DNA from: Rufibacter roseus
GTDB lineage: Bacteria; Bacteroidota; Bacteroidia; Cytophagales; Hymenobacteraceae
Reading direction: 5' to 3'
Assembly (NCBI RefSeq): GCF_001647285.1
Contig: NZ_LRML01000004.1
Location: forward strand, 310,001-374,000
DNA: 64,000 nt
The stretch's first letter is position 1. Each line of letters starts with the position of its first letter. A program made the position numbers and the translations under genes. This document shows, one piece after another, positions 361 through 61,819 of this stretch. The notes beneath the pieces are model-generated. The model was not told the DNA's origin. It saw only the letters and a program-made list of their open reading frames with translations, and ran no database searches.

Positions 361-388
361 CCTGTTTTTTGAAAAACTGCTCCAAAAC
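361..388. repeat. PIR-A palindrome, copy 1 (degenerate)
   Basis: A weak match to the family: CCTGTTTTTTGAAAAACTG followed by CTCCAAAACG. Only the centre and right arm are recognisable. It starts 1 bp after the stop of the first gene and runs into a canonical terminator. Confidence 0.4.
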
Positions 389-416
389 GCCTTCCTCCCC
401 GGAAGGCGTTTTCTTT
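384..416 (+). terminator. Intrinsic terminator of the proline-rich gene
   Basis: A perfect 12-bp stem, AAAACGCCTTCC paired with GGAAGGCGTTTT around a TCCCC loop, is followed by a T-rich run (TTTTCTTTT). It lies 24 bp after the stop codon. Confidence 0.8.
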
Positions 417-455
417 TGCCCGAGCGTAACCAGTAGGTTTTCAGGCAAATCCTTC

Positions 456-463
456 TAGCTTTG
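456..463 (+). promoter_or_regulatory. Bacteroidota -7 box (TAGCTTTG) of the ABC operon
   Basis: TAGCTTTG matches TAnnTTTG and lies about 30 bp before the TTG start of the ABC ATPase. No convincing -33 TTTG is visible at standard spacing. Confidence 0.5.
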
Positions 464-492
464 TAGAAACCAAACCTCAACCAAACATCATT

Positions 493-1395
493 TTGGCAAA
501 CGTATTAGACATTCAGGGGCTGAGCAAGCGCTACGGCAGAGTGCAGGCCCTGGACCAACTGAGCATTGGCGTTCCGCAGGGCAGCATTTACGGGCTGCTA
601 GGACCCAACGGCAGCGGCAAAACCACCACGCTAGGCATTGTGCTGGATGTGATCAACCCCTCGGGCGGCACCTTCCAATGGTTCGGGCAAACCATGTCCA
701 AGAGCACCAAGCGGCGCATTGGCGCGTTGCTGGAAACTCCCAATTTTTACCCCTACCTCAGCGGCGAACAGAACCTCAGAATTTCAGCCGACATAAAGAA
801 AGTAGATCACGCACATATTCAAAGGGTGCTGGACATGGTAGGCCTTTCGCACCGGAAGCAGAACAAGTTCAAGGGCTATTCTTTGGGTATGAAACAACGG
901 CTGGCCATTGCCTCGGCGCTGCTAGGCGACCCAGAGGTGCTGGTGCTGGATGAACCCACCAATGGTTTAGACCCCGAGGGCATTGCCGAAGTACGTCAGC
1001 TCATTTTAGACGTGGCGGCGCAGGGCAAAACTATTTTATTGGCCAGTCACTTACTTGATGAAGTGGAGAAAGTCTGCACCCACATGGCAGTACTGCGCAA
1101 CGGCAAATTGAAAGCAGAGGGACCGGTTTCCTCCATCATGTCCACCAACGATCAAGTGTTCATCAGCGGCGGGGCACCTCTGGAGCAGCTATTAGTATTG
1201 GCGCAGCAGTTACCCTTTGTGACTGAGGCGCGGGTACAGCAGAACCAGGTGCAGTTGGTGCTGCAATCTGGCACAGACAGCTCAGAATTGAACAGCGCGT
1301 TTTTTGCACAGGGCGTGGCGCTAGGGCAGCTGACTGTTAAAAAGAAAAGCCTTGAAAGCCAGTTTATGGAAATCATTAAAGCCGAAACCGTATGA
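493..1395 (+). CDS. ABC transporter ATP-binding protein (exporter type)
   Basis: 300-residue ATPase. Walker A GPNGSGKT is at 37-44, the signature SLGMKQR at 130-136 and Walker B VLVLDE at 149-154, followed by the switch histidine in LLASHLLDE. A C-terminal domain of about 80 residues without a recognised motif follows. This is the architecture of the bacitracin/ABC-2 exporter family. The start is TTG: no in-frame ATG lies between the -7 box and the conserved N-terminus. Its stop overlaps the start of the permease gene by 4 bp (ATGA), so the two are translationally coupled and should form one exporter. Substrate unknown. Confidence 0.9.
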   Translation: MANVLDIQGLSKRYGRVQALDQLSIGVPQGSIYGLLGPNGSGKTTTLGIVLDVINPSGGTFQWFGQTMSKSTKRRIGALLETPNFYPYLSGEQNLRISADIKKVDHAHIQRVLDMVGLSHRKQNKFKGYSLGMKQRLAIASALLGDPEVLVLDEPTNGLDPEGIAEVRQLILDVAAQGKTILLASHLLDEVEKVCTHMAVLRNGKLKAEGPVSSIMSTNDQVFISGGAPLEQLLVLAQQLPFVTEARVQQNQVQLVLQSGTDSSELNSAFFAQGVALGQLTVKKKSLESQFMEIIKAETV

Positions 1396-2168
1396 CCTCT
1401 TCGTTACTTAGCATAGAACTCCGCAAGCTGCTACCCTACCGCACGTTCTGGGTTATTTTAGCCGTGTACGTAGCCCTGCTGGTGCTTATTCTGTACTTCA
1501 GCAGCCACGTGACCATTAACGGTCAAAAAGCCGGCGAATCTTTTTACCAGTTCCCCGACCTCTGGGTTAAGCTCACCTACATTGCCAGCTATTTTAACCT
1601 GCTGCTGGGCATATTAGTGATTATTGCCGTGACCGATGAATACGCCTTCAGAACCATCAGGCAGCAGGTAATTGACGGCTACACCCGTGCCAACGTAGTG
1701 CAGGCCAAATATTCAGTAGTGCTTTTGTTGGGAGTGGTGTGCGCCTTATTGGTGTTCCTATTAGGCATTATCTTCGGAAACATCTTCAGTCCGGCCTCTA
1801 ACACGGCTAACATGTTCACTGACTCGCACTACGTGTTCTTTTACTTTATACAGGCGGTAGGGTACATGACGCTGGCCATGCTGTTCGGTTTCCTGATTAA
1901 GAAAAGCGGATTAGCCATTATTGCTTTTTTGATTTACGCTAAAATTGTAGAGCCCATTATTCATTACCAACTTCCTGATTCGGTAGACAAGTATTTCCCC
2001 ATGAAAGCCCTGTCTACCCTCACGCCTATTCCAAATAAAGAGCTGTTTGAAATGGTCACCGGAGCTTCTGAAAGCCTTGGCATTTGGGGAGCCGCCGCAC
2101 AATCAGTTATTTACATCATGCTCTTTTGCTTGCTAAGTTACATTCTGCTACGGTCAAGAGATTTATAA
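1392..2168 (+). CDS. ABC-2 type transporter permease
   Basis: 258-residue integral membrane protein with about six hydrophobic segments (around 18-38, 60-80, 100-130, 150-170, 175-195 and 235-253) and a cytoplasmic N-terminus starting with charged residues (IELRKLLPYRT). This fits the permease half of an ABC-2 exporter. It overlaps the ATPase gene by 4 bp and is followed by a PIR-A palindrome and then a strong terminator, so the operon is two genes long. The cargo cannot be inferred from sequence; lipid or antimicrobial peptide export would be typical of relatives. Confidence 0.85.
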   Translation: MTSSLLSIELRKLLPYRTFWVILAVYVALLVLILYFSSHVTINGQKAGESFYQFPDLWVKLTYIASYFNLLLGILVIIAVTDEYAFRTIRQQVIDGYTRANVVQAKYSVVLLLGVVCALLVFLLGIIFGNIFSPASNTANMFTDSHYVFFYFIQAVGYMTLAMLFGFLIKKSGLAIIAFLIYAKIVEPIIHYQLPDSVDKYFPMKALSTLTPIPNKELFEMVTGASESLGIWGAAAQSVIYIMLFCLLSYILLRSRDL

Positions 2169-2171
2169 GCT

Positions 2172-2209
2172 CGTTTTAGGCCTATTTTTTACAAAACAGG
2201 CCTAAAACA
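2172..2209. repeat. PIR-A palindrome, copy 2
   Basis: Arms GTTTTAGGCCT and AGGCCTAAAAC are perfectly complementary around a T6-AC-A4 centre. It begins 4 bp after the permease stop. A separate canonical terminator follows, so the palindrome is not itself needed as the intrinsic terminator here. Confidence 0.9.
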
Positions 2210-2213
2210 ACAA

Positions 2214-2255
2214 CCAAGAGCCCCGTTGCAAAAAGCAACGGGGCTCTTGGTTTTT
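2214..2255 (+). terminator. Strong intrinsic terminator after the ABC operon
   Basis: A perfect 16-bp stem (CCAAGAGCCCCGTTGC and its complement) with an AAAAA loop is followed by TTTTT. The preceding A-rich bases may also let it work toward the minus strand. Confidence 0.92.
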
Positions 2256-5176: not shown

Positions 5177-5218
5177 TGCGTTTTCAGTCTGTTTTTCAGA
5201 AAACAGGCCGAAAACGCA
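5177..5218. repeat. PIR-A palindrome, copy 3
   Basis: TGCGTTTTC and the complementary right arm AAAACGCA enclose a CTGTTTTTCAGAAAACAG centre. It lies 48 bp after the stop of the porin gene, in the gap before ribBA. Confidence 0.88.
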
Positions 5219-9007: not shown

Positions 9008-9069
9008 AAGCAGAGGGGCTGTTTTAGACCTGTTTCCGAGAAAACAGGCTTAAAACAGCCCCTCTGCTT
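9008..9069. repeat. PIR-A palindrome, copy 4, extended by a gene-specific stem
   Basis: The core (CTGTTTTAGACCTGTTT and right arm) is extended outward by AAGCAGAGGGG paired with CCCCTCTGCTT, giving a stem of nearly 30 bp. It lies 56 bp after the dnaG stop. Confidence 0.9.
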
Positions 9070-11251: not shown

Positions 11252-11290
11252 TGTTTTAGGCTTGTTTTTCAAAAAAGAACTGTAAAACAG
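11252..11290. repeat. PIR-A palindrome, copy 5 (imperfect)
   Basis: Left arm TGTTTTAGGCTTG, centre TTTTTCAAAAAA, right arm CTGTAAAACA with several mismatches. It is 116 bp downstream of the META-domain gene. Confidence 0.7.
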
Positions 11291-11909: not shown

Positions 11910-12043
11910 ATAAAACACAACTTAGGTTATTACTATGACCCAGCCCTCACCCAATAATTGCACCACCGAAAAACCTATTTTTGACTTACTTTCTGTAAAC
12001 CAAGCCAAAACGGCTTTTGATAGGGAGTTACCCATATAGTTTG

Positions 12044-13188: not shown

Positions 13189-13458
13189 ATGGCAGAGAAC
13201 GCACTAAACGAAATTTTACTCCAGCAAGTGGAGGCCGCCCTTGACACCATTCGCCCCTACCTGAAAACCGACGGTGGTGACGTAAAGGTGCTGGACATTA
13301 CTGAAGAAAAGGTAGTGCAGCTGGAACTGATGGGTGCCTGCGGCTCCTGCCCTATGTCGGCTATGACTTTTAAAGGCGGTATTGAGCAGGCTATCATGCG
13401 TGCCGTGCCTGAAATTAAAGGCATTGAGGCCGTGAACTTGACTCCTATGGACGTATAG
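13189..13458 (+). CDS. NifU C-terminal domain (Nfu) Fe-S scaffold
   Basis: 89 residues, a single Nfu domain without the IscU-like part of full NifU. The cluster cysteines are C51 and C54 in GACGSCPMS; the N-terminal signature is IRPYLKTDGGDVKVLDI. It carries a 4Fe-4S cluster bridged between two subunits for transfer to apoproteins. It is cotranscribed with mrp. Confidence 0.95.
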   Translation: MAENALNEILLQQVEAALDTIRPYLKTDGGDVKVLDITEEKVVQLELMGACGSCPMSAMTFKGGIEQAIMRAVPEIKGIEAVNLTPMDV

Positions 13459-13478
13459 ATAAAATTTAAATTTTGTAC

Positions 13479-13530
13479 AGCCCGCCAATGGTAGAAGCTT
13501 TTGCCTCTGCTGTTGGCGGGCTTTGCGTTT
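13479..13530 (+). terminator. Terminator-like hairpin after nfu
   Basis: AGCCCGCCAA and TTGGCGGGCT form a perfect 10-bp stem with a long 24-base loop, followed by TTGCGTTTT. Confidence 0.65.
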
Positions 13531-13562
13531 TAGGGCTATTTTAGCAAAAACAGCCCTAAAAC
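13526..13562. repeat. PIR-A palindrome, copy 6
   Basis: CGTTTTAGGGCT and AGCCCTAAAACG pair perfectly; the third arm pair is GGGCT/AGCCC rather than the commoner GGCCT. It is 68 bp after nfu, overlapping the end of its terminator. Confidence 0.9.
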
Positions 13563-13608
13563 GGAAGTAAGAAAAGCCTCAACTTCTCTTATCATTACTT
13601 CAAAGCAG

Positions 13609-13645
13609 AATCCCCCTTTGAAGGGGGCGAAGGGGGATGTTTACA
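13609..13645. repeat. C-run hairpin repeat, copy 1
   Basis: TCCCCCTTTGAAGGGGGCGA then AGGGGGATGTTTACA. The CCCCCTT run can pair with either of two AAGGGGG-like runs. Related copies are near 36364 and 36584. Confidence 0.75.
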
Positions 13646-13684
13646 CCAGCAGATCCACGCATTCCAGATCCTAATCTTTGTTGC

Positions 13685-14131
13685 GGTCATCCTGAGCGCC
13701 AGCCGAAGGATCTAACGAAGACGCAGTCCTTCTACCTTTTAAGTAAACCCCACCACCACTTTATCACCCGCCGTTGTTGCATGTTTTCACCAACAACAAA
13801 AATACCTTTTGCTCCCAATACAGCTTCTGCCTTATTTCAGTCTGCATCTCTCCTTGCATGGTTTTGTCACTTTTCTCCTTGATGTTCAACCTAACCAAAA
13901 GAATCAAGAAGCCCTTAAACTCGCTGCCGCTCAAACAGTAAGGGCTTCATTAAATTTACCACCTGGCCGATGTGCGCTGTTCCATTGCGGAAGTGGCTAC
14001 TGCTAACTTGAACCTGTATCTCGTGCTCCCGCTAAGCGCCTCGGCGCCTTCGGCTTCTGCGTTGCCCGCTCCCGCAGGAAACAGTAAGGAGGGTGTGGTA
14101 ATTAAATTTGTTTTTTTTGACTCAGGACTCG
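13685..14131 (+). repeat. E447 dispersed element, copy 1
   Basis: Matches 48823-49268 in reverse orientation over its whole length, 447 against 446 bp. Landmarks in order: GTCATCCTGAGCG...AAGGATCTAACGAAG (hairpin-forming end), CCGCCGTTGTTGC, TCACCAACAAC, GCTTTTGCTCCCA-like, GTCACTTTTCTCCTTGATG, ACCAAAAGAATCAAGAAGCCC, CTCGTGCTCCCGCTAAGCGC, TTGCCCGCTCCCGCAGGAAA, and GACTCAGGACTCG at the far end. The copies differ by many substitutions and small indels, and reading frames are not shared. No transposase is inside. Confidence 0.85.
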
Positions 14132-14151
14132 CGACTCAAGACTCAGAACTC
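14119..14151. repeat. Degenerate GACTCA(A/G)GA short tandem repeat
   Basis: About four 8-10 bp units: GACTCAGGACTCGCGACTCA then AGACTCAGAACTC. It starts at the far end of E447 copy 1. Confidence 0.65.
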
Positions 14152-14291
14152 ATTTATAATAAGTGGGCACAGTCAGTTTGCCTACGTTTCACCGCTTGCT
14201 AATTGGCCTCTTTGAATCCTGAGTGCTCCTGATTATCTGACCGGAAGTACCAAACCAAAACACTCCCCCTTTCATTTCGCGTATAGGTTTC

Positions 14292-14299
14292 TATCTTTG
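14292..14299 (+). promoter_or_regulatory. -7 box (TATCTTTG) of fahA
   Basis: Full TAnnTTTG match 24 bp before the fahA ATG. Confidence 0.6.
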
Positions 14300-14322
14300 T
14301 TTGCTACCTAACTAAGCCCACT

Positions 14323-15597
14323 ATGAAAGCCAATGATCCCTCTATCCACTCTTGGATACAGATTGCGCCAGACTGTGATTTTCAACTACAGAACCTCCCT
14401 TTCGGAATTTTCCAGACGGTTGACCGTGACCCACGCGTGGGCGTTGCCATTGGTGACTATATAGTTGATGTGTATGCCCTTACTCAGCATCGCCTCTTCG
14501 ACATGCTGGACATAGATGACCCCACCGTTTTCCACCGGCCCTACCTAAACGATTTTATGGCTCTTGGACGGCCTATTTGGCGCCAGGTGCGGGAGCGTAT
14601 TTCTGAGTTACTCCGCAACGACAATCCTGAAATAAGGGACAACCGGGAGCTGATGTACGAGTGCCTGGTTAAGCAAAAAGATGCTCAGATGCTCATGCCG
14701 GTCAAGGTACCTAATTATACTGATTTTTACTCTAGCATTGACCACGCCACTAATGTAGGCTCTATGTTCCGTGATCCGGCCAATGCCCTTTTACCTAACT
14801 GGAAGCACCTGCCGGTGGGCTACCATGGCCGCGCCTCCTCCATTATACCCTCTGGTGCCCCCATCAGGCGACCCAAAGGACAGACCAAACCCGCCGATGC
14901 CGATGCCCCCGTCTTTGGACCGACCAAACAGCTGGACTTTGAGCTGGAGGTAGCTTTCATCACTGGGCAGGCCACCGTTTTGGGCACTAGCCTCACTACA
15001 TTGGAGGCAGAAGAATACATTTTCGGATTAGTGTTGTTCAATGACTGGTCAGCCCGCGATATTCAAGCTTGGGAGTACGTGCCGCTGGGACCTTTTCTGG
15101 CCAAAAACTTTGCATCGTCTATCTCTCCCTGGGTGGTGACCTTAGACGCTTTGGAGCCTTTCAGAGTACTGGGGCCAAAGCAAGACCCTAAAGTTCTTCC
15201 TTATCTGGAGTACAGCGGCGACGGTAACTTTGATATACAACTGGATGTAACGCTCCAGGCACCAGGTCTGGAGCAGGAAATAAGTATTTGCCGCTCAAAC
15301 TACAAGTACCTGTACTGGAACATGAACCAACAGCTGGCGCACCATACCGTGAACGGCTGCAACATTGAAGTAGGTGATATGTATGCCTCGGGCACCATCA
15401 GCGGCCCTACTCCAGATTCATATGGCTCTATGCTGGAGCTCACTTGGCGCGGCACCAAACCCCTGCAGCTCCCCGACGGTACTGAGCGTAAGTTCCTGCA
15501 CGACGGCGACATTATTACCATGCGTGGTTACGCTGAGAAAAATGGAATCAGGGTTGGTTTTGGTGAAGTCCGGACAGAAATTATGCGCGCTCTTTAG
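14323..15597 (+). CDS. fahA: Fumarylacetoacetase
   Basis: 424 residues, normal length. It cleaves 4-fumarylacetoacetate to fumarate and acetoacetate, the last step of tyrosine/homogentisate breakdown. An N-terminal SH3-like domain (FGIFQTVDRDPRVGVAIGDYIVD) precedes the FAH fold with the metal and substrate residues in TDFYSSIDHATNVG, LPVGYHGRASSI, LDFELEVAFITG and FNDWSARDIQAWEYVPLGPF. It stands alone; homogentisate dioxygenase is not in the window. Confidence 0.97.
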   Translation: MKANDPSIHSWIQIAPDCDFQLQNLPFGIFQTVDRDPRVGVAIGDYIVDVYALTQHRLFDMLDIDDPTVFHRPYLNDFMALGRPIWRQVRERISELLRNDNPEIRDNRELMYECLVKQKDAQMLMPVKVPNYTDFYSSIDHATNVGSMFRDPANALLPNWKHLPVGYHGRASSIIPSGAPIRRPKGQTKPADADAPVFGPTKQLDFELEVAFITGQATVLGTSLTTLEAEEYIFGLVLFNDWSARDIQAWEYVPLGPFLAKNFASSISPWVVTLDALEPFRVLGPKQDPKVLPYLEYSGDGNFDIQLDVTLQAPGLEQEISICRSNYKYLYWNMNQQLAHHTVNGCNIEVGDMYASGTISGPTPDSYGSMLELTWRGTKPLQLPDGTERKFLHDGDIITMRGYAEKNGIRVGFGEVRTEIMRAL

Positions 15598-15600
15598 AAT

Positions 15601-15645
15601 TTGAAGATGTGGAAATGAAAAGATGTGGAAATTTAAAATTTTAGG
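15601..15645. repeat. Degenerate GAAATGTGGA-type short repeat after fahA
   Basis: Units TGAAGATGTGGAAATG, AAAAGATGTGGAAATT and AAATTTTAGGAA. A related stretch, GGAAATGTGGAGATGTGACG, is at 42152-42171 after the E2 gene. Confidence 0.5.
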
Positions 15646-15666
15646 AATACTTATTAAGATAGATTT

Positions 15667-15744
15667 ATGGCGCAAGCGTCCGCTTGTTTCCGCACGCATT
15701 GGTGATCAGGAATGCGTGCGGACTTAAGCGGACGCTTGCGCCAT
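15667..15744. repeat. Double-hairpin repeat (GGCGCAAGCG family), copy 1
   Basis: The outer arm ATGGCGCAAGCGTCCGCTT (19 bp) is matched exactly by the right end, and an inner arm CCGCACGCATT/AATGCGTGCGG (11 bp) lies around a 10-base loop. The design (short structured unit, two nested stems) resembles REP elements. A second copy is at 28988-29060. Confidence 0.88.
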
Positions 15745-15804
15745 GGAATAATTCTCACAGTTTCAAATCCACCCAACCTTCATTACGTCTCCTAACCTAA
15801 TTGT

Positions 15805-16716
15805 ATGAAAACTTTCAATCCTAAAGAAATACCCACCAATGAGTTTCATCCTTTGATGTTGGGAGCCATAGCGCCACGGCCCATTGCATTTGCCAGCACG
15901 GTAGACAACGAGGGAAATGTGAACCTCAGCCCGTTTAGTTTCTTTAACTGCTTTGGGTCAAATCCGCCGGTGCTGGTATTCTCGCCCTCGCGGCGGGTGC
16001 GGGATAATACGGGCAAACACACCTTAGATAATGTGCTGGAGACGGGTGAGGTAGTGATAAACATAGGAAACTATGCCATTGTGGAGCAAATGTCGTTGGC
16101 TAGCACCGAATATGATAAAGGCGTAAATGAATTCATAAAAGCAGGCCTTACTGCAGAAGCATCTACTTTGGTAAAACCACCGCGTGTGGCCGAAGCCCCA
16201 GCCGCTTTTGAGTGCAGGGTACTGGAGGTAAAACCCATAGGGAGTGGCGGTGGCGCGGCTAATCTGGTTATCTGCGAAGTGCTGTTGCTGCACGTTCGGG
16301 AAGACATCTTCAATGCTGACGGCAAAACCATAGACCCTTTTAAACTCGATGCCGTTGCTCGCTTGGGCGGAGATTGGTATCTGCGCGCCATCCCCGACAG
16401 CCTTTTTGAATTACTAAAACCCCTGCGCACTAAAGGCATGGGCGTAGATCAGCTTCCCGACCACATCCGAAACAGCTCTGTACTGACGGGCAACAACTTG
16501 GCCCGCTTGGGTAACACCGAGACAATACCCACCGAGGCTGAGCTACAGGAATTCGCCAGTGAACCTATGTACCGCTATCTGGTACAAACCCATGAAAATA
16601 ATAAGGAGGAAAAGGAACGCCAGATTCACCTGCTGGCCCAGCGGCTGTTAGAAGAGGGCCGTGTGCACGAGGCCTGGAAAGCATTGCTGGTGTGCGGCAG
16701 AGAAATGGAAAACTAG
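15805..16716 (+). CDS. Flavin reductase-like (DIM6/NTAB family) FMN-binding protein
   Basis: 303 residues. The N-terminal two-thirds is the split-barrel flavin reductase fold (MLGAIAPRPIAFASTVDNEGN, NLSPFSFFNCFGSNPPVLVFSP) that binds FMN. About 90 extra C-terminal residues (after LARLGNTE) are helical and charged, ending in LLEEGRVHEAWKALL, longer than minimal members of the family. Likely reduces FMN with NAD(P)H or acts as an oxidoreductase on an unknown substrate. No partner monooxygenase is nearby. Confidence 0.88.
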   Translation: MKTFNPKEIPTNEFHPLMLGAIAPRPIAFASTVDNEGNVNLSPFSFFNCFGSNPPVLVFSPSRRVRDNTGKHTLDNVLETGEVVINIGNYAIVEQMSLASTEYDKGVNEFIKAGLTAEASTLVKPPRVAEAPAAFECRVLEVKPIGSGGGAANLVICEVLLLHVREDIFNADGKTIDPFKLDAVARLGGDWYLRAIPDSLFELLKPLRTKGMGVDQLPDHIRNSSVLTGNNLARLGNTETIPTEAELQEFASEPMYRYLVQTHENNKEEKERQIHLLAQRLLEEGRVHEAWKALLVCGREMEN

Positions 16717-16721
16717 GATGC

Positions 16722-16759
16722 TGTTTTCAGGCTACTTTAGCAAAAACAGACTGAAAACA
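16722..16759. repeat. PIR-A palindrome, copy 7
   Basis: TGTTTTCAGGCTA, centre CTTTAGCAAAAA, right arm CAGACTGAAAACA. It begins 6 bp after the flavin reductase stop. Confidence 0.85.
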
Positions 16760-16811
16760 CATTTACATGGCGTTGAAAAACTATACTAGAAAAGAAGAAT
16801 AGCTTTTACGT

Positions 16812-17303: not shown

Positions 17304-17350
17304 ACTAACCCTATACAGTAGCACTGGTCACACTTTGCTTTGTCTAAAAA

Positions 17351-17394
17351 TACTGTTTTGAAGCTGTTTTCAGAAAAACAGCTTCAAAACAGTA
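17351..17394. repeat. PIR-A palindrome, copy 8
   Basis: TACTGTTTTGAAGCTGTTTT, a CAG spacer, then the exact complement: about 20 bp of perfect stem. Arm variant GAAGC/GCTTC. It lies 48 bp upstream of a minus-strand start rather than after a stop. Confidence 0.92.
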
Positions 17395-17558: not shown

Positions 17559-17604
17559 AATCCGTTTAGGGGCTGTTTTATTAAAAACAGCCCCTAAACG
17601 GATT
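17559..17604. repeat. PIR-A palindrome, copy 9
   Basis: AATCCGTTTAGGGGCTGTTT and its complement with a 4-6 base centre (TTATTAA), a perfect stem of about 20 bp. Arm variant GGGGC/GCCCC. It is 41 bp after the ald stop. Confidence 0.9.
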
Positions 17605-17644
17605 TCAAAAATCTTGTGTTTAATATTTAAAATCTGACTTCCTC

Positions 17645-22841: not shown

Positions 22842-22895
22842 CCGTCTGCTTTAGGGCTGTTTTTGTAAAAGCAGCCCTAAAGCAGACGGTTTTTA
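22842..22895 (+). terminator. PIR-A palindrome, copy 10, working as a terminator
   Basis: CCGTCTGCTTTAGGGCTG-type arms pair over about 20 bp with only a small mismatch, and the stem is followed by TTTTTATTT. This is the clearest PIR-A copy with a trailing T-run. It is 25 bp after the stop. Confidence 0.88.
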
Positions 22896-25658: not shown

Positions 25659-25696
25659 TGTTTTGGAGCTGTTTTAAGGAAAACAGCTCCAAAACA
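25659..25696. repeat. PIR-A palindrome, copy 11
   Basis: TGTTTTGGAGCTGTTTT, an AAGG spacer, then the perfect complementary arm. Arm variant GGAGC/GCTCC. It is 15 bp after the SGNH gene stop and 73 bp before the GH95 start. Confidence 0.92.
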
Positions 25697-26398: not shown

Positions 26399-26436
26399 TG
26401 TTTTGGGCCTAATTTCTAAAAAACAAGCCTAAAACA
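26399..26436. repeat. PIR-A palindrome, copy 12
   Basis: TGTTTTGGGCCTA, centre ATTTCTAAAAAA, right arm CAAGCCTAAAACA. It is 37 bp after the GH2 stop and 17 bp upstream of the SGNH start. Confidence 0.85.
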
Positions 26437-28927: not shown

Positions 28928-28965
28928 TGTTTTGGACCTGTTTTCTCCAAAACAAGCCCAGAACA
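28928..28965. repeat. PIR-A palindrome, copy 13
   Basis: TGTTTTGGACCTG, centre TTTTCTCCAAAA, right arm CAAGCCCAGAACA. It lies 29 bp upstream of the GH2 start and shows that the longer GH2 frame is not coding. Confidence 0.82.
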
Positions 28966-32197: not shown

Positions 32198-32235
32198 TGT
32201 TTTGGGCCTGTAATTCAGAAAGCAAGCCAAAAGCA
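32198..32235. repeat. PIR-A palindrome, copy 14 (imperfect)
   Basis: TGTTTTGGGCCTG, centre TAATTCAGAAA, right arm GCAAGCCAAAAGCA. It is between two divergent starts, not after a stop. Confidence 0.7.
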
Positions 32236-36227: not shown

Positions 36228-36265
36228 TGTTTTCAGGCTGTTTTTCAAAAAAGAGGGCTAAAACA
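36228..36265. repeat. PIR-A palindrome, copy 15
   Basis: TGTTTTCAGGCTG, centre TTTTTCAAAAAA, right arm GAGGGCTAAAACA with mismatches. It starts 10 bp after the ABC ATPase stop. Confidence 0.75.
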
Positions 36266-36675: not shown

Positions 36676-36713
36676 CGTTTTCGGCCTGTTTTCCAAAAAT
36701 CAGCCCCAAAACA
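36676..36713. repeat. PIR-A palindrome, copy 16
   Basis: CGTTTTCGGCCTG, centre TTTTCCAAAAAT, right arm CAGCCCCAAAACAG. It is 163 bp after the erythromycin esterase stop. Confidence 0.8.
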
Positions 36714-38437: not shown

Positions 38438-38475
38438 TGTTTTAGGCCTATTTTTACAAAAACAGACCTAAAACA
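38438..38475. repeat. PIR-A palindrome, copy 17
   Basis: TGTTTTAGGCCTA, centre TTTTTACAAAAA, right arm CAGACCTAAAACA. It is 53 bp after the DUF4197 stop, beyond its terminator. Confidence 0.9.
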
Positions 38476-42190: not shown

Positions 42191-42230
42191 CAGAACGGCT
42201 CTCTGCAAAAACAGAGAGCCGTTCTGTTTT
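42191..42230 (+). terminator. Terminator after the E2 gene
   Basis: A perfect 15-bp stem, CAGAACGGCTCTCTG with its complement, 6-base A-rich loop, then TTTT. It overlaps the start of a PIR-A copy. Confidence 0.9.
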
Positions 42231-42261
42231 CTGCCTGTTTTAAGAAAATCAGCCCTAAAAC
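42224..42261. repeat. PIR-A palindrome, copy 18
   Basis: CTGTTTTCTGCCTG, centre TTTTAAGAAAAT, right arm CAGCCCTAAAACA; 76 bp after the E2 stop. Confidence 0.78.
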
Positions 42262-42334
42262 ACATATTGCAAAACTCGATATCCTAGAATATAGTAAAAG
42301 CTTTATCTTGGCTGGCAAAACCTGACCTAACACT

Positions 42335-42877: not shown

Positions 42878-42915
42878 CTTTTTTGGTTTGTTTTTAAGAA
42901 ATTAGGGCAGAAACA
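42878..42915. repeat. PIR-A palindrome, copy 19 (degenerate)
   Basis: CTTTTTTGGTTTG, centre TTTTTAAGAAA, right arm TTAGGGCAGAAACA. It begins at the stop of the preceding gene. Confidence 0.5.
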
Positions 42916-45168: not shown

Positions 45169-45264
45169 CTACTCTGTCTTTCACTATATTCAGAGAACCA
45201 TATACAGCTAAATTCTTCCAAACTAATTGAACAGAAAATTGTAGATTTGAGGTTTGGAGATATC

Positions 45265-47931
45265 ATGGCTACGAATACATATAAACGAGATGTAGGGACT
45301 GATCCGCGGCCTAAGAACATGCCGAGGAGTCAGAACGAACCAAAGGGGAAGTTTGAAGGACGGGCTCCTAAAGAGCCCCGGCAGAAAAGGACTTTTTCAG
45401 CCCCTCAGCTGCCTTTTACCTTTCTGAAAGATCGGCGGCTGCAGCTGTTCTTCGGTTTCTTCTTTCTGTTGTCTTCTTTGTACCTGTCTATTGCTTTTGT
45501 CTCGTTCTTGTTCACCGGAGCCGCTGACCAAAGTGTGGTTGAGTCTGTTACTACTTCTGATGTAAAAGAGGCGGGTCTGGAGTCAGAAAATTGGCTGGGC
45601 TTATTTGGCGCCTGGATTTCTGATTACTTTATTAACCGCTGGTTTGGAGTTGCTTCCTTTTTCTTTGTCCCAATGGTCTTTTACATTGGGTACCGTATTG
45701 TTTTCCGCCGCACCAATGTCACCCTATCCTCTATTGTTACCCTTTGCCTGTTTGGCCTGCTATGGGGCAGCATTTCTGCCGGCTACATTGTTCTCACTAG
45801 CCTGAATGTAGAAGGATATGGCTTTCTAAGTGGAGCCATTGGATATGAATCTGCCCTTTGGCTGCAAAGCCTGATTGGTGTAGGCACAGGGTTTTTACTT
45901 GTGTTTTTACTCGTGATGTTCGTGATTTTCTTCTTTGACATCACCACCCTTAACCGGCCTAAAGCCTCTAAGGCCAGTGAACCTGCCGTGGCGGCCAACA
46001 CTGTGGCCAGACCAACAGAATCAGCAGCAAACGTGTATGCTTCTCCTTCTGTGGCCATGAACCACCTCACCAACCCGACCGGCACACTTGAACCCGAAGA
46101 AGAGGAAGAGCAAGAGCCCACTATAGAGCCGGAAGAAGAATTCACACCACCATTTGCCGTGCAGCAACAGGTATCTGCTGCTGCTAAGGAACTAATTATT
46201 GATCAAGAAGAAGAGAATGAAGTCGAATTATTCGCTGAAAATGATCTTCCCGTTACTCCGCGGCCCACTACTTCCACTTCCGTTCCGCTGTCTCTGGAGG
46301 TAGAAGACGATGTGCTGATCATTGAAAATGAGCAGAATGTACCGGCACTGGAAGATGAGGAGTTAGATTTGGACATAGCCAAAGTGGAGCCGGAAGACGA
46401 AGCCGACACCTTGACGAGTGAAAACTATGATCCTACCTTGGATTTGCCGCGCTACCAGTATCCTTCTATTGATTTACTCACCGATTACGGCGCCGCCAAA
46501 GTACAGGTAACCAAAGAAGAACTGGAGGCAAACAAAGACAAAATTGTAGAAACCCTCGGTAACTATAGCATTGGCATAGCCAGCATAAAAGCGACCATTG
46601 GCCCTACCGTTACACTGTATGAAATAGTACCAGAGGCTGGTGTGCGTATTTCCAAAATCAAAAGCCTTGAAGATGATATTGCTTTGAGTTTGGCTGCCCT
46701 AGGAATCCGGATCATCGCTCCTATTCCGGGTAAAGGCACTATTGGTATTGAGGTACCGAACAAGAAAAAGGAAATGGTGCCTATCAAGGCAATTTTGAGT
46801 ACTGAGAAGTTCATGAAGAGCGAAATGGATTTGCCTATCGCCTTCGGAAAAACCATCACGAACGAAGTATTTATCACTGACTTGGCCAAAATGCCTCACT
46901 TACTTATGGCGGGTGCCACGGGGCAGGGTAAATCGGTAGGTTTGAACGCCATACTTACTTCGCTGTTGTACAAGCGCCACCCCTCACAGCTCAAATTTGT
47001 GTTGGTAGACCCTAAAAAAGTGGAATTGTCGCTGTTCAACAAGATTGAACGCCATTTCCTGGCCAAACTGCCTGACACAGATGAAGCCATCATTACTGAT
47101 ACAAAGAAAGTAGTTAACACGCTGAACTCGCTCTGTATGGAGATGGACCAGCGCTATGACCTTTTGAAGGAGGCAGGTTGCCGCAACCTAAAGGAGTACA
47201 ACCTTAAATTTGTAGAGCGACGCCTCAATCCAAAGAAAGGGCACCGCTTTATGCCGTACATCGTGTTGGTAATTGATGAGTTAGCTGACTTGATGATGAC
47301 CGCCGGTAAAGAAGTGGAAACACCTATTGCCCGTTTGGCCCAGCTGGCCCGTGCCATTGGTATTCACTTAGTGGTGGCCACACAGCGTCCATCAGTGAAC
47401 GTAATCACAGGTATTATCAAAGCCAACTTCCCGGCTCGTATATCTTTCAAAGTAACGTCTAAAATTGACTCACGTACAATCCTGGACACTGGCGGAGCCG
47501 ATCAGTTAATTGGCCAGGGCGACATGCTGTTCTCACTGGGTTCAGACCTGATCAGGGTACAGTGCGCGTTCGTTGACACCCCTGAGGTTGATCGTATCTG
47601 TGATTTCATTGGTGAACAACAGGGCTATCCGGATGCGTATATGCTGCCAGAGTTTGTAGGCGATGACAGCGGCAACGAAAAAGCCGAGTTCGACCCTAGC
47701 AACAAAGACGCTATGTTTGAAGAAGCAGCCCGGATTGTGGTGACTCACCAACAGGGAAGTACTTCTTTGCTGCAACGCCGCCTGAAGCTGGGCTATAACC
47801 GCGCAGGCCGTTTAATTGACCAATTAGAAGCCGCCGGCGTGGTTGGTCCGTTTGAAGGAAGCAAAGCCCGTGAAGTTTTAATTCCAGATGAATACAGTTT
47901 GGAACAGTTATTGAATAACATGAATCCATAA
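45265..47931 (+). CDS. ftsK: DNA translocase FtsK/SpoIIIE
   Basis: 888 residues from the ATG at 45265 (MATNTYKRDVGTDPRP), with GGAG upstream. Four N-terminal membrane segments, a Glu/Pro-rich acidic linker (EPEEEEEQEPTIEPEEEF), and the alpha/beta motor with Walker A GATGQGKS at 550-557 and Walker B VLVIDELADLMM. The C-terminal gamma winged helix (LLQRRLKLGYNRAGRLIDQL) reads KOPS-type sites. It pumps chromosome dimers through the division septum for XerCD resolution. lolA follows after 37 bp. Confidence 0.97.
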   Translation: MATNTYKRDVGTDPRPKNMPRSQNEPKGKFEGRAPKEPRQKRTFSAPQLPFTFLKDRRLQLFFGFFFLLSSLYLSIAFVSFLFTGAADQSVVESVTTSDVKEAGLESENWLGLFGAWISDYFINRWFGVASFFFVPMVFYIGYRIVFRRTNVTLSSIVTLCLFGLLWGSISAGYIVLTSLNVEGYGFLSGAIGYESALWLQSLIGVGTGFLLVFLLVMFVIFFFDITTLNRPKASKASEPAVAANTVARPTESAANVYASPSVAMNHLTNPTGTLEPEEEEEQEPTIEPEEEFTPPFAVQQQVSAAAKELIIDQEEENEVELFAENDLPVTPRPTTSTSVPLSLEVEDDVLIIENEQNVPALEDEELDLDIAKVEPEDEADTLTSENYDPTLDLPRYQYPSIDLLTDYGAAKVQVTKEELEANKDKIVETLGNYSIGIASIKATIGPTVTLYEIVPEAGVRISKIKSLEDDIALSLAALGIRIIAPIPGKGTIGIEVPNKKKEMVPIKAILSTEKFMKSEMDLPIAFGKTITNEVFITDLAKMPHLLMAGATGQGKSVGLNAILTSLLYKRHPSQLKFVLVDPKKVELSLFNKIERHFLAKLPDTDEAIITDTKKVVNTLNSLCMEMDQRYDLLKEAGCRNLKEYNLKFVERRLNPKKGHRFMPYIVLVIDELADLMMTAGKEVETPIARLAQLARAIGIHLVVATQRPSVNVITGIIKANFPARISFKVTSKIDSRTILDTGGADQLIGQGDMLFSLGSDLIRVQCAFVDTPEVDRICDFIGEQQGYPDAYMLPEFVGDDSGNEKAEFDPSNKDAMFEEAARIVVTHQQGSTSLLQRRLKLGYNRAGRLIDQLEAAGVVGPFEGSKAREVLIPDEYSLEQLLNNMNP

Positions 47932-48654: not shown

Positions 48655-48692
48655 AGAGGCTCCTGCTTTAAAGCAGGGGCCTCTTCTGTTTT
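48655..48692 (+). terminator. Terminator after ftsK-lolA
   Basis: AGAGGCTCCTGCTT pairs with AAGCAGGGGCCTCT (one wobble), then TCTGTTTT. The T-run is also the left arm of the next PIR-A copy. Confidence 0.85.
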
Positions 48693-48723
48693 AGTGCTGT
48701 TTTCTGAAAAGAATAGCTAAAAG
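48686..48723. repeat. PIR-A palindrome, copy 21
   Basis: CTGTTTTAGTGCTG, centre TTTTCTGAAAAG, right arm AATAGCTAAAAG with mismatches; 64 bp after the lolA stop. Confidence 0.7.
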
Positions 48724-48736
48724 GGCACTCAGCAAA

Positions 48737-48777
48737 GACTCTCGCAGGTCCTCCGGACGCTACGAGGTCGTTTGAGC
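48737..48777. repeat. GACCTCGCAG hairpin repeat, copy 3 (inverted, diverged)
   Basis: On the minus strand GCTCAAACGACCTCGTAGCG then TCCGGAGGACCTGCGAGAG; the CTCG.../...CGAG stem is kept. Confidence 0.65.
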
Positions 48778-48822
48778 AGGCGGTTTGGTATCAGCAGGCG
48801 AACTGAACCCACCCCTACCCCT

Positions 48823-49268
48823 CGAGTCCTGAGTCATCAAATAATATAGAAAAGATACCATTCCCACTCTTGCCTTTCCTGCGGGAGCGGGCAACGCAGT
48901 GCCAAGGGCACGCAGGCGCTTAGCGGGAGCACGAGACGAAGGTTCAAATTAGTAGTAGCCACCGATACAATGGAACTTCGCACGGCTGCCAAGTGGTAAA
49001 ATAATTGGAGCCCCTCCTGTCTGAGCGGCAGCGAGTCAGGGGCTTCTTGATTCTTTTGGTTACTTTTCTCATCAAGGAGAAAAGTGACAAACCCCAGCAG
49101 GGAGAGAAGAAGCTAGAAATATAGGAATAGCGGTTGTGGGAGCAAAAGCCGTAGAGGTTGTTGGTGAGAACACGCAACAACGGCGGAAGGTACAGCGGTG
49201 TTGGGAGTAAAAGTGCTGGTAGAATATTGCATCTTCGTTAGATCCTTCGGCTAGCGCTCAGGATGACC
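48823..49268 (-). repeat. E447 dispersed element, copy 2
   Basis: Inverted relative to 13685-14131, 446 bp. It has the same block order on the minus strand: GTCATCCTGAGCG..., CCGCCGTTGTTGC, TCACCAACAAC, GCTTTTGCTCCCA, GTCACTTTTCTCCTTGATG, ACCAAAAGAATCAAGAAGCCC, CTCGTGCTCCCGCTAAGCGC, CGCTCCCGCAGGAAA, GACTCAGGACTCG. It has an extra GAGAAAAGTAAC arm next to CTTGAT that copy 1 has partly lost (GTTCAACCTAAC), allowing a 10-12 bp hairpin. Confidence 0.85.
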
Positions 49269-49303
49269 AGAAGAAGTAGAATTTGAATTATGTTAGCTGA
49301 AAC

Positions 49304-49342
49304 CTGTTTTTCATCCATTTCCCTAAAAACAAGGCAAAAACA
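49304..49342. repeat. PIR-A palindrome, copy 22 (degenerate)
   Basis: CTGTTTTTCATCC, centre ATTTCCCTAAAAA, right arm CAAGGCAAAAACA. It ends 4 bp before the pyrF -7 box, so it covers the -33 region. Confidence 0.45.
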
Positions 49343-50209: not shown

Positions 50210-50247
50210 CGTTTTAGACCTAATTAAAGGAAATCAGCTGGAAAACG
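50210..50247. repeat. PIR-A palindrome, copy 23
   Basis: CGTTTTAGACCTA, centre ATTAAAGGAAAT, right arm CAGCTGGAAAACG; starts 2 bp after the pyrF stop. Confidence 0.75.
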
Positions 50248-52927: not shown

Positions 52928-52969
52928 TCTGTTTTAGCCTTATTTTCTTCAAGACAGCCCTGAAACAGA
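52928..52969. repeat. PIR-A palindrome, copy 24
   Basis: TCTGTTTTAGCCTTA, centre TTTTCTTCAAGA, right arm CAGCCCTGAAACAGA; 49 bp after the preceding stop. Confidence 0.8.
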
Positions 52970-53757: not shown

Positions 53758-53796
53758 CTGTTTTGGGACTGTTTTTCCTAAATTTGCCCTAAAATG
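53758..53796. repeat. PIR-A palindrome, copy 25
   Basis: CTGTTTTGGGACTG, centre TTTTTCCTAAAT, right arm TTGCCCTAAAATGG; sits between the two inverted short-repeat tracts. Confidence 0.7.
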
Positions 53797-55893: not shown

Positions 55894-55932
55894 GGTTTTA
55901 GGCGCGTTTTCTTGAAAATAGGCCTAAAACAG
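55894..55932. repeat. PIR-A palindrome, copy 26
   Basis: GGTTTTAGGCGCG, centre TTTTCTTGAAAA, right arm TAGGCCTAAAACAG; 26 bp after the phosphorylase stop, overlapping the next terminator by 3 bp. Confidence 0.85.
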
Positions 55933-56398: not shown

Positions 56399-56440
56399 TC
56401 TGTTTTAGTCCTCTTTTCTTAAAAATAGGCCTAAAACAGA
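56399..56440. repeat. PIR-A palindrome, copy 27
   Basis: TCTGTTTTAGTCC, centre TCTTTTCTTAAAAA, right arm TAGGCCTAAAACAGA. It abuts the stop codon of the acyl-CoA reductase gene. Confidence 0.88.
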
Positions 56441-57986: not shown

Positions 57987-57990
57987 TATA

Positions 57991-58030
57991 TCTTTTTTGG
58001 GCTTATTTTTCAGAAAACAGGGCTAAAACA
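57991..58030. repeat. PIR-A palindrome, copy 28
   Basis: TTTTTTGGGCTTA, centre TTTTTCAGAAAA, right arm CAGGGCTAAAACA; 60 bp after the ferredoxin stop, directly after its terminator. Confidence 0.78.
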
Positions 58031-60789: not shown

Positions 60790-60808
60790 ATTATATTATT
60801 AATTGTTT

Positions 60809-60846
60809 CAAAAGCGCTGCTCCATCTAGAGCAGCCGCTTTTGTTT
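60809..60846 (+). terminator. Terminator after valS
   Basis: AAAAGCGCTGCTC pairs imperfectly with GAGCAGCCGCTTTT around CATCTA, then GTTTT. Confidence 0.7.
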
Positions 60847-60874
60847 TAAGAAAATCGCCCATATCAGATCGTTC

Positions 60875-60894
60875 GGACAGGGCTTGACCTGTCC
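60875..60894. repeat. GGACAGGT palindrome, copy 3 (centre changed)
   Basis: GGACAGGGCTTGACCTGTCC: outer arms kept, the central GTCGCGAC half lost. Confidence 0.75.
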
Positions 60895-60959
60895 CCTGCG
60901 GTTCCAATATATCATCGCCTCCTATGCAACGTTATGTGTGATTCTCGGGATTGCGTGGC

Positions 60960-60979
60960 GGACAGGTCGCGACCTGTCC
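60960..60979. repeat. GGACAGGT palindrome, copy 4
   Basis: GGACAGGTCGCGACCTGTCC, identical to copy 1 at 36423. It would lie inside the long form of the DUF72 frame, so it argues for the downstream start. Confidence 0.9.
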
Positions 60980-61022
60980 CTACGTCACAACCTCCTGCCT
61001 TTACCAACTGTATAACCCATCT

Positions 61023-61760
61023 ATGCAGGAAAAGGGAAAAATACACATCGGCACCTCGGGTTGGCACTACAATCACTGGAAAGGTAATTTCTATCCGCCC
61101 GGTGTCACCTCCAAACAGTTCACAGAGTACTACCTACGCTATTTCCGAACAGTAGAAATCAACAATTCTTTCTACCGTCTTCCTACTGCTGAAACATTTG
61201 CCAGCTGGCGCACCAGTGTACCCGATGATTTTCTTTTTGCGGTGAAAGGCAGCCGCTACATCACCCACATGAAGAAGCTGAAAGACCCGCAGCAGGGACT
61301 TTCGCTGTTGTTGGGCAATGCGCAGGCACTGGAGGAAAAGCTTGGGCCTATCCTGTTCCAATTGCCGCCCATGTGGCGCGTGAACGTGGAGCGCTTACGT
61401 GATTTCCTAAAAGCCCTGCCGCCTTACTTCAGGTATACCTTTGAGTTTAGGGAGCCTAGCTGGTACAACGAAGAAATTTACGCTTTGCTACGCGAGCACA
61501 ACCATGCATTCTGCATCTATGAACTAGCGGGGCACATGTCGCCGCTGGAAGTTACGGCTGACTTTGTTTACGTGCGTTTGCACGGGCCCGGCGGCAAGTA
61601 CCAGGTAAGCTACTCAGACAGCGCCCTGCAATGGTGGGCTACCGCCTGCCACAACTGGGCCAGCCAAGGCAAAGATGTGTTTGTGTACTTTGACAATGAC
61701 CAAGAGGGCTACGCTGCATTCAACGCCATCACCCTACAACAAATGGTCAATAGTGCCTAA
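61023..61760 (+). CDS. DUF72 (YecE-like) protein
   Basis: 245 residues from the ATG at 61023 (MQEKGKIHIGTSGWHYNHWK). TIM-barrel family signatures: IGTSGWHYNHWKGNFYP, FAVKGSRYITHMKKL, LGPILFQLPPMW, YTFEFREPSWYNEEI and VYVRLHGPGGKYQVSYSD. Biochemical role unsettled. Upstream in-frame ATG at 60951 rejected because it precedes a dispersed palindrome. Confidence 0.9.
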   Translation: MQEKGKIHIGTSGWHYNHWKGNFYPPGVTSKQFTEYYLRYFRTVEINNSFYRLPTAETFASWRTSVPDDFLFAVKGSRYITHMKKLKDPQQGLSLLLGNAQALEEKLGPILFQLPPMWRVNVERLRDFLKALPPYFRYTFEFREPSWYNEEIYALLREHNHAFCIYELAGHMSPLEVTADFVYVRLHGPGGKYQVSYSDSALQWWATACHNWASQGKDVFVYFDNDQEGYAAFNAITLQQMVNSA

Positions 61761-61780
61761 TTCTAAACTCATCAAATTAT

Positions 61781-61819
61781 CTGTTTTTGACCTCTTTTTC
61801 TAAAAACAAGCTAAAAGCA
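61781..61819. repeat. PIR-A palindrome, copy 29
   Basis: CTGTTTTTGACCTC, centre TTTTTCTAAAAA, right arm CAAGCTAAAAGCA; 21 bp after the DUF72 stop. Confidence 0.7.

What the first reader, a model, noticed from the sequence alone, without database searches (positions are those of the whole stretch)
361..61819. PIR-A: about 29 copies of a 36-44 bp palindrome, strictly intergenic
Seen: one copy roughly every 2.2 kb (29 in 64 kb, of which about 3 are degenerate), all outside coding sequence. The core is TGTTTTAGGCCTG, a T4-5/A4-5 centre, then the complementary arm, so the whole unit folds back with a loop of 3-5 bases. About 24 copies lie within 165 bp after a stop codon, several within 10 bp. The others are upstream of starts: near 17351, 32198, 43945 and 49304. 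Most lack the trailing T-run of an intrinsic terminator, and several sit next to a separate strong terminator (2214, 42191, 48655, 57958), so simple termination does not explain them. Inference: a REP/BIME-like family, a 3'-end RNA processing or stability signal, or a site for a DNA-binding protein.
Basis: partly seen in the sequence, partly recalled or inferred. Interest (0 to 1): 0.8.

Follow-up and report, generated by a model that had tools for sequence, protein, structure and literature searches.

The report
Palindromic DNA marks at gene ends
The bacteria of one genus, Rufibacter, carry about two thousand copies per genome of a 38-letter mirror-symmetric DNA site, mostly where genes end, which tends to stay in place between species but changes its spelling in some lineages, as if an unknown DNA-binding protein were reading it.

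Summary
The window holds 29 copies of a 38-bp palindrome; an own-genome sample has 204 in 564 kb, shuffles none. All 16 Rufibacter-genus genomes have 32-53 per 100 kb, about 1,500-2,900 per genome. Of 134 other family genomes 8 have any match, 1-4 each.

Copies sit at gene ends: 60 of 77 short convergent gaps, 82 of 244 tandem, 3 of 27 divergent. "Strictly intergenic" is wrong: 56 of 983 lie in called genes; one in scpA passes threshold in 15 of 16 species.

In 84% of copies the arms vary nearly independently, and tandem copies show no RNA-strand bias. Half-sites are mostly paired, at a fixed 4-bp spacing. Junctions tend to keep or lack a site across species, while some lineages have sharp dialects. 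RAYT does not track the sites.

Best reading: binding sites of an unidentified symmetric DNA-binding protein marking transcription-unit ends. The DNA-site inference is fairly strong; protein and function are not shown. About 16% extend into terminator-like hairpins.

The parts
352..389 (.). partial, degenerate copy
   Evidence: score 18 with the retrained model; R1 16.2 bits at 356-385
2172..2209 (.). 38-bp palindromic site, convergent gap, 3 bp after a stop
5179..5216 (.). 38-bp palindromic site
9020..9057 (.). 38-bp palindromic site with 12 further paired bases outside the core
11252..11289 (.). 38-bp palindromic site
11976..12013 (.). 38-bp palindromic site, weak
13526..13563 (.). 38-bp palindromic site
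16722..16759 (.). 38-bp palindromic site, 5 bp after a stop
17354..17391 (.). 38-bp palindromic site, 3 further paired bases
17563..17600 (.). 38-bp palindromic site, 4 further paired bases
22847..22884 (.). 38-bp palindromic site, 5 further paired bases
25659..25696 (.). 38-bp palindromic site; a weak counterpart in G002, the one relative compared
26399..26436 (.). 38-bp palindromic site
28928..28965 (.). 38-bp palindromic site
32198..32235 (.). 38-bp palindromic site in a divergent gap; counterpart in G002, the one relative compared
36228..36265 (.). 38-bp palindromic site, 9 bp after a stop; 11 of 12 relatives compared have at least one site in this gap
36676..36713 (.). 38-bp palindromic site (same gap as 36228)
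38438..38475 (.). 38-bp palindromic site; 12 of 14 relatives compared have one in this gap, mostly at another place in it
42225..42262 (.). 38-bp palindromic site; a counterpart (score 16-51) in the same gap in 14 of 14 relatives compared
42878..42915 (.). 38-bp palindromic site, weak, abutting a stop codon
43957..43994 (.). 38-bp palindromic site with 12 further paired bases outside the core
48687..48724 (.). 38-bp palindromic site, degenerate; 5 of 5 relatives compared have at least one site in this gap
49305..49342 (.). 38-bp palindromic site, degenerate (same gap as 48687)
50210..50247 (.). 38-bp palindromic site, weak, 1 bp after a stop; same junction occupied in 5 of 5 relatives compared (scores 18-57), G005, G012 and G013 in their own dialect
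52930..52967 (.). 38-bp palindromic site; counterpart in 2 of 2 relatives compared
53759..53796 (.). 38-bp palindromic site, 3 further paired bases; right arm similar in four of four relatives compared
55894..55931 (.). 38-bp palindromic site, convergent gap; only 2 of 5 relatives compared have one
56401..56438 (.). 38-bp palindromic site, 2 bp after a stop; counterpart in 5 of 5 relatives compared
57993..58030 (.). 38-bp palindromic site
61782..61819 (.). 38-bp palindromic site

Best explanation
The palindromes are double-stranded DNA sites for an unidentified, symmetric (dimeric or tetrameric) sequence-specific DNA-binding protein of Rufibacter. The half-site in the window's species is about TTC-TGTTTT-AGGCC-TGTTTT-Y: two T-tracts about 11 bp apart. 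Two half-sites meet head to head across a fixed 4-bp centre. Shown: the sites, their number, placement, rigid spacing, prevalent pairing, near-independence of the arms, conservation by junction, and dialects in some lineages. Inferred: that a protein reads them as duplex DNA, and that dialects follow changes in its specificity. More weakly inferred: that occupancy at transcription-unit ends insulates neighbouring units (blocking read-through, or confining the positive supercoiling expected between convergent genes), with about 16% of copies also forming the top of an intrinsic-terminator-like hairpin.
For: Rigid 4-bp centre in 854 of 933 copies when spacers 0-14 were scanned without penalty. 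Half-sites mostly paired: 1447 inside palindromes against 121 alone (34 in shuffles); in the six species whose threshold exceeds 21 bits, 442 against 4 (2 in shuffles). In 750 of 894 copies the arms vary nearly independently at positions 8-18, and tandem copies show no RNA-strand bias (606 G.U against 579 A.C mismatches, p 0.45). Swapping arms between copies of a species changes mean RNA folding energy only from -9.68 to -9.08 kcal/mol in that class. T at 89-100% at positions 3-6 and 97-98% at 15-17. Placement: convergent 60/77, tandem 82/244, divergent 3/27 of gaps of 60-149 bp (convergent v tandem p 1e-11). Presence goes with the junction: tandem 238 both / 30 one / 160 neither; 21 of 28 junction families uniform, 7.6 expected. 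Derived G012 dinucleotide spread over arms independently: both arms 27, expected 27.4, n=66. Sites inside genes without length change.
Against: No protein was found or tested. Positions 6-7 co-vary between arms in the bulk class (z 5.7 and 7.3), position 9 slightly (z 3.2), and G005 shows a slight coupling of its derived dinucleotide (31 copies with both, 28.2 expected). G.T and A.C mismatches cluster slightly by strand within copies (1.118 against 0.999, sd 0.046). The centre avoids self-complementary pairs (17% against 29.5%), which a symmetric protein does not demand. 144 of 894 copies are extended hairpins. The scpA site lies 31 bp inside a coding sequence, awkward for a strong transcription block. 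Conservation is not universal: the convergent site at 55894 is matched in 2 of 5 relatives. Copies can be gained in blocks: three in a G012 junction that is 84 bp long and empty in three species. Over all species, copies within a species are hardly more alike than between species (23.8 against 23.6 of 38), so dialects are sharp only in some lineages. A few copies lie in other genera and a viral contig, so some may spread with DNA.
Confidence: 0.55

Rival explanations
1. RNA hairpins: bidirectional intrinsic terminators or 3'-end stabilisers selected for folding in the transcript.
For: 144 of 894 copies have >=3 extra pairs outside the core, with co-variation along the stem; several of the own-genome examples printed show A-run/T-run flanks. 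In tandem gaps of 90-600 bp with one site and a separate terminator, 44 of 83 sites lie within -20 to +15 nt of it, 12.5 expected (range chosen after seeing the histogram). Gene ends in convergent gaps without a site more often have a separate terminator (53/112 against 119/368).
Against: 84% of copies lack stem co-variation except mainly at positions 6-7; no G.U over A.C bias in 489 tandem copies, nor in the 77 of them with extended stems (67 against 59, p 0.53); no U-tract at most window copies; rigid centre; terminator frequency at tandem gene ends is the same with (76/392) and without (68/354) a site.
Confidence: 0.17
2. REP-like mobile elements, single-stranded DNA hairpins spread by a RAYT (TnpA-REP) transposase.
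For: Size, copy number and placement resemble REPs (PMC3733652, passages). RAYT homologues occur in 15 of 16 Rufibacter genomes. A few copies lie in other genera.
Against: G007 has no RAYT match but 43 sites in 120 kb. G018 has RAYT homologues but no whole-genome match to the site model. Of four own RAYT genes measured none has a site within 200 bp on both sides, against 45 of 319 genes in general (small n). No GTAG or CGTC tag. Presence conserved by junction. No indel, or one residue, where a coding site is absent in a homologue (16 cases).
Confidence: 0.1
3. Molecular drive as in DNA-uptake sequences: biased uptake or recombination spreads and homogenises a lineage-specific word.
For: Thousands of copies, dialects and inverted pairing near terminators recall the Neisseriaceae DUS (PMC3630211, passages). 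Dialects are sharp in G012, G005 and G007+G013.
Against: Single half-sites are few (121 against 1447 paired), whereas a single DUS word is the repeated unit. Only 56 of 983 copies lie in called genes. Presence is tied to particular gene junctions.
Confidence: 0.1

Closest known systems
REP / BIME elements and RAYTs (GTAG- and CGTC-tagged repeats; PMC3733652 and PMC6006769, passages read)
   Same: 20-40-bp palindromes in high copy, mostly between convergent and co-directional genes, close to stops
   Different: symmetric, no GTAG or CGTC tag, no RAYT correlation, rigid centre, arms varying nearly independently, presence conserved by junction across a genus, sites in genes without length change
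DNA uptake sequences and their dialects (PMC3630211, passages read)
   Same: about two thousand copies, dialects, inverted pairs near terminators
   Different: solitary half-sites few, the unit is a 38-bp pair with 4-bp spacing, mostly outside genes, tied to particular junctions
Binding sites of chromosome-organising proteins (parS, matS and Noc sites: recalled; HU as insulator of transcription units, PMC4992867: search listing only; GapR on positively supercoiled DNA between convergent genes, PMC8360656: abstract)
   Same: dispersed sites; palindromic for parS, matS and Noc (recalled); the convergent-gene preference recalls GapR
   Different: many more copies than parS, matS or Noc sites (recalled), longer bipartite half-sites, placed at gene ends, essentially restricted to one genus in the genomes searched, protein unknown
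Intrinsic transcription terminators (general knowledge)
   Same: some 16% of copies continue into a longer stem, with A-run and T-run in several examples
   Different: the rest lack stem-wide co-variation, most window copies lack a U-tract, and some sit beside a separate terminator

Membership tests
REP elements (GTAG or CGTC class) | GTAG or CGTC tetranucleotide at one end | tested here: not met
   Own-genome half-site ends read TTC-[T/C]GTTTT; position 4 is T in 100%, which excludes CGTC there
REP elements (GTAG or CGTC class) | RAYT gene present and flanked by the repeats | tested here: not met
   G007 has none but carries the sites; 0 of 4 own RAYT genes measured have a site within 200 bp on both sides, against 45 of 319 genes in general
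REP elements (GTAG or CGTC class) | intergenic, near stops, convergent more than divergent | tested here: met
Intrinsic terminator | GC-rich hairpin followed by a U-tract | tested here: not met
   Bulk class: >=5 T in 8 after either end in 6 of 30 window copies; 144 of 894 copies do have extended stems
Intrinsic terminator | pairing conserved on the transcribed strand (G.U tolerated, A.C not) | tested here: not met
   606 G.U against 579 A.C in 489 tandem copies, p 0.45
DNA uptake sequence | single word abundant outside inverted pairs | tested here: not met
   121 solitary against 1447 paired half-sites, 34 solitary in shuffles
DNA uptake sequence | stimulates DNA uptake | not testable with these tools
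   needs transformation assays
MITE or insertion element | copies appear as insertions relative to empty sites | tested here: inconclusive
   16 of 56 coding copies had a homologue without a site in the gene: no gap at the place in 14, a one-residue gap in 2; half of the 16 are weak hits. But a G012 junction is about 680 bp longer, with three copies, than in three species without
Operator of a symmetric DNA-binding protein | paired half-sites at fixed spacing, arms constrained in sequence but independent | tested here: met
   exceptions: positions 6-7 co-vary, and the extended-stem class co-varies throughout
Operator of a symmetric DNA-binding protein | a protein that binds it | not testable with these tools
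   no candidate identified

The most novel reading that the evidence does not exclude
Rufibacter has a genome-wide DNA-marking system in which an unknown oligomeric protein occupies about two thousand largely conserved transcription-unit ends and insulates units from one another. Its sequence specificity has shifted in several lineages, with the sites in those genomes following in place, half-site by half-site.
Probability: 0.35. Interest if true: 0.88.

Novelty: new variant of a known kind. Interest (0 to 1): 0.74.

Why it matters
If a protein reads these sites, it would be an abundant, nearly genus-restricted, sequence-specific chromosome protein placed at gene ends, a position usually assigned to terminators or REP elements. 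Sharp dialects in some lineages on a background of conserved junctions offer a natural experiment in how a trans-factor and some two thousand cis-sites change together. The data also show how to separate double-stranded sites from hairpins within one family: arm independence, G.U against A.C, spacer rigidity, solitary half-sites.

Tried and rejected
RNA-hairpin reading: first favoured because 27 window copies co-vary. It weakened when 187 own copies and then 894 copies from 16 species showed that the co-variation comes mainly from an extended-stem minority plus positions 6-7.

RAYT/REP: Pfam PF01797 and a protein search, and the surroundings of own RAYT genes (five places fetched, four with a called gene): no link.

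DUS-like drive: solitary half-sites scanned; few.

Outgroup genera having their own version: repeated 8-mers in G017 and G029 first looked similar, but these words are short and very frequent, apparently also inside genes, so rejected as the same thing.

Copies in other genera as an ancestral operator next to the gene of the binding protein: seven stretches from six of the eight genomes showed no clearly shared neighbouring gene apart from the near-identical pair G110/G146 and one weak match (26% identity, L194 against L198). Some stretches share short DNA repeats around the sites. Rejected; the origin of these copies is not settled.

Rfam: nothing at gathering score in the window; a permissive scan of 13400-18000 gave microRNA and snoRNA matches below their cut-offs. 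Viral collection: two patterns, one contig found, with four sites. Plasmids: one 38-bp query, no match covering most of it. Literature: the listings show no description of these repeats in Rufibacter or its family; the two papers hold each word once and were not opened.

Limits: gene calls come from my own simple codon-usage caller, not a standard annotation; some 'divergent' or 'coding' labels will be wrong. Sampling was 564 kb of the own genome and 120 kb of each relative, partly orthologous blocks. Pairwise ortholog comparisons share junctions; the non-redundant count is 28 junction families. In one search ortholog identity used one orientation, paralog identity the better of two for the per-species figures, which favours paralogs. 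Shuffles were done once per setting. Whole-genome model searches score a capped number of candidates (150 or 40 per genome), with stricter filters, so they give presence, not copy number. About half of the in-gene copies that could be compared have scores of 18-25 and may be chance.
Full report
What was checked. The window lies in a 5.1-Mb genome of 39 contigs, from the genus of Rufibacter: the eight closest named loci for one of its proteins (79-83% identity) are from seven Rufibacter species or strains and Sabulibacter ruber. Eight unnamed relatives share contig lengths with those records: G002 R. psychrotolerans, G003 R. latericius, G004 R. hautae, G005 R. immobilis, G010 R. sediminis, G011 S. 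ruber, G014 Rufibacter sp. SYSU D00344, G015 R. glacialis. The search tool places all 16 genomes G000-G015 in one genus, called Rufibacter here.

The repeat. Twenty-seven copies align without gaps. A profile scanner finds 29 in the window and 175 in 500 kb of other own sequence, with none in a shuffle, which extrapolates to about 1,860 per genome. The element is a 38-bp inverted repeat around a 4-bp centre, with a weaker TTC/GAA extension on each side. Each arm holds two T-tracts: positions 3-6 (89-100% T) and 15-17 (97-98% T); positions 8-14 are constrained less strictly.

Distribution. In the 16 genomes (564 kb of the own, 120 kb of each relative) there are 983 copies, 31.7 to 52.5 per 100 kb, none in shuffles. 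Outside the genus, 0 of 13 genomes had a model match. In a wider draw 8 of 134 other family members had 1-4 matches each, both strands counted, with stricter filters and 40 candidates scored per genome. Seven stretches from six of these eight were read. Two (L197, L199) held transposase-like reading frames by my own reading of the translations; no neighbouring gene was clearly shared except in the near-identical pair G110/G146. How these copies got there is open.

Where they sit. By my simple gene caller, gaps of 60-149 bp hold a site in 60 of 77 convergent, 82 of 244 tandem and 3 of 27 divergent cases (convergent v tandem p 1e-11, tandem v divergent p 0.016). In the own genome 20 of 22 convergent gaps of that size are occupied, and the median distance to a stop is 35.5 bp against 81 for random placement in the same gaps. 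Tandem gaps under 40 bp have 1 of 276, but the element hardly fits there. Separate intrinsic terminators are equally frequent at tandem gene ends with (76/392) and without (68/354) a site, and rarer at convergent gene ends with a site (119/368 against 53/112). Where a tandem gap holds both, they tend to be adjacent: 44 of 83 lie within -20 to +15 nt, 12.5 expected.

Duplex site or hairpin. A hairpin selected as RNA should show compensatory pairing, a G.U over A.C bias on the transcribed strand and tolerance of loop length. Of 894 copies with a 4-bp centre and full flanks, 750 have fewer than three extra paired bases outside the core. In these, pairing at positions 8-18 lies close to the arm-shuffled expectation (excess at 9, z 3.2; deficits at 12-14, z -2.0 to -3.4), while positions 6 and 7 do co-vary (z 5.7, 7.3). 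Tandem copies have 606 G.U and 579 A.C mismatches (p 0.45), and those with extended stems 67 and 59 (p 0.53). The arm upstream in transcription is no better than the other (p 0.54, n 455). A small clustering of G.T against A.C within copies exists (1.118 against 0.999, sd 0.046) and is unexplained. The centre is 4 bp in 854 of 933 copies with spacers 0-14 allowed, and half-sites are mostly paired (1447 against 121 alone, 34 in shuffles). These features describe a symmetric duplex DNA site. The other 144 copies have extended stems with co-variation along the arms (the longest extension seen among all copies is 18 pairs); several own-genome examples carry A-run and T-run flanks. They look like intrinsic terminators with the site at the top.

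Conserved junctions, changing spelling. Of 28 junction families seen in at least three species, 11 always have a site, 10 never, and 7 are mixed; 7.6 uniform families would be expected if presence were independent. Counted pairwise, with overlap, tandem junctions are 238 both, 30 one, 160 neither; divergent 42, 5, 127; convergent 168, 19, 1, the last showing no association because nearly all have sites. The window site at 42225 has a counterpart in the same gap in 14 of 14 relatives compared, while the empty gaps at 39281 and 40592 are empty in 14 of 14 each. Exceptions exist: the convergent site at 55894 is matched in only 2 of 5. Some species spell the site their own way: CA at positions 13-14 in 68% of G012 arms and at most 2% elsewhere; AG at 6-7 in 72% of G005 arms and at most 18% elsewhere; T at 7 in 96% and 90% of G007 and G013 arms and at most 42% elsewhere. 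Leave-one-out assignment puts 49 of 53 G012 and 43 of 54 G005 copies in their own species, but only 361 of 897 overall, because nine species share a broad common form. Over all species, orthologous copies are somewhat more alike (26.1 of 38, 223 pairs) than random copies between species (23.6), and random copies within a species are hardly more alike than that (23.8). In the dialect species this reverses: G005 copies average 24.2 to orthologs and 31.3 to their own paralogs (25 pairs), G013 25.2 and 28.6 (30), G007 25.0 and 29.1 (31) (paralogs had the benefit of two orientations). In G012 the derived dinucleotide is distributed over arms independently (27 copies with both, 27.4 expected, of 66), as expected from change by point mutation arm by arm and not from copying whole elements; G005 shows slight coupling (31 against 28.2 of 54). 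Dialect distance follows the protein tree loosely (Spearman 0.37), and G012 and G005 sit on unremarkable branches; G012 had fewer residues in that tree.

Sites in genes. 56 of 983 copies lie at least 20 bp inside called genes. For 25 of these a homologue was in the sample, and for 16 one without any site in the gene; the proteins showed no gap at the place in 14 of the 16 and a one-residue gap in two. Eight of the 16 score 25 or less and may be chance. A G005 copy of score 44 lies where five relatives have protein of equal length and no site at that place. In scpA (methylmalonyl-CoA mutase; name from recall of the sequence) a site 31 bp into the gene scores 21-51 in 15 of 16 species and 8 in G003, while the encoded residues vary; in four other genera there is none in the stretch read, and a fifth could not be framed. 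G016 and G017 align over the same protein range. So sites can arise and persist by substitution, which argues for selection on the DNA word.

What it is not. The REP tags GTAG or CGTC are absent in the own-genome consensus (definitions from passages of PMC3733652). RAYT homologues do not track the sites and four own RAYT genes are not specially flanked. DNA uptake sequences share the dialects (PMC3630211, passages) but the single word is their repeated unit. No Rfam family matches the window at gathering score.

Most likely working. An unidentified symmetric protein binds the sites as duplex DNA. Placement between convergent genes and after stops suggests insulation of transcription units or handling of the positive supercoils that are enriched between convergent genes (PMC8360656, abstract). 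That step is inference; the scpA site, inside a coding sequence, speaks against a strong block to transcription there. The protein remains to be found.

Verdict. A real and unusual genus-wide site family; the REP and RNA readings mostly fail; the duplex-site reading is the best supported but unproven. I file it as a new variant of a known kind (dispersed palindromic protein sites), not as a member of any named family.

Noticed in passing
window about 48821-49287 and, inverted, 13678-14100: A separate interspersed repeat of about 445 bp; 17 further own-genome places at 81-86% identity are listed (list truncated), with shorter matches in G001, G002, G005, G006 and G013.
   Followed up: partly
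window 36423, 36537, 60875, 60960: Small second palindromic family around GGACAGGTCGCGACCTGTCC.
   Followed up: no
window 36281-36334, 43113-43166, 48732-48773: Another dispersed repeat, AAAAGACCTCGCAGTGTCTCC..., present in both orientations.
   Followed up: no
window 15667-15744, related copy at 29027-29063: Long inverted repeat with arms of 39 nt, 87% complementary, no spacer.
   Followed up: no
L158-L161 (G029) and L150-L153 (G017): Other genera of the family carry short, very frequent words, ACCTAGG/CCTAGGT and TATATAG/CTATATA, apparently also inside genes, reminiscent of HIP1 (comparison recalled).
   Followed up: partly
L170 (G012), junction orthologous to window 45169-45318: The junction is 764 bp with three sites in G012, 383 bp with one in G013, and 84 bp with none in G004, G005 and G006: gain of copies together with new DNA.
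   Followed up: no
L200 (part of a 39-kb viral contig): Four sites in a viral record, two of them strong, so virus or prophage DNA can carry the word.
   Followed up: partly
centre of the copies: The two central bases avoid being complementary (17% against 29.5% expected) and prefer CA/TG and CT/AG, giving many copies a polarity that does not clearly follow gene direction (137 against 112, 206 without polarity).
   Followed up: partly
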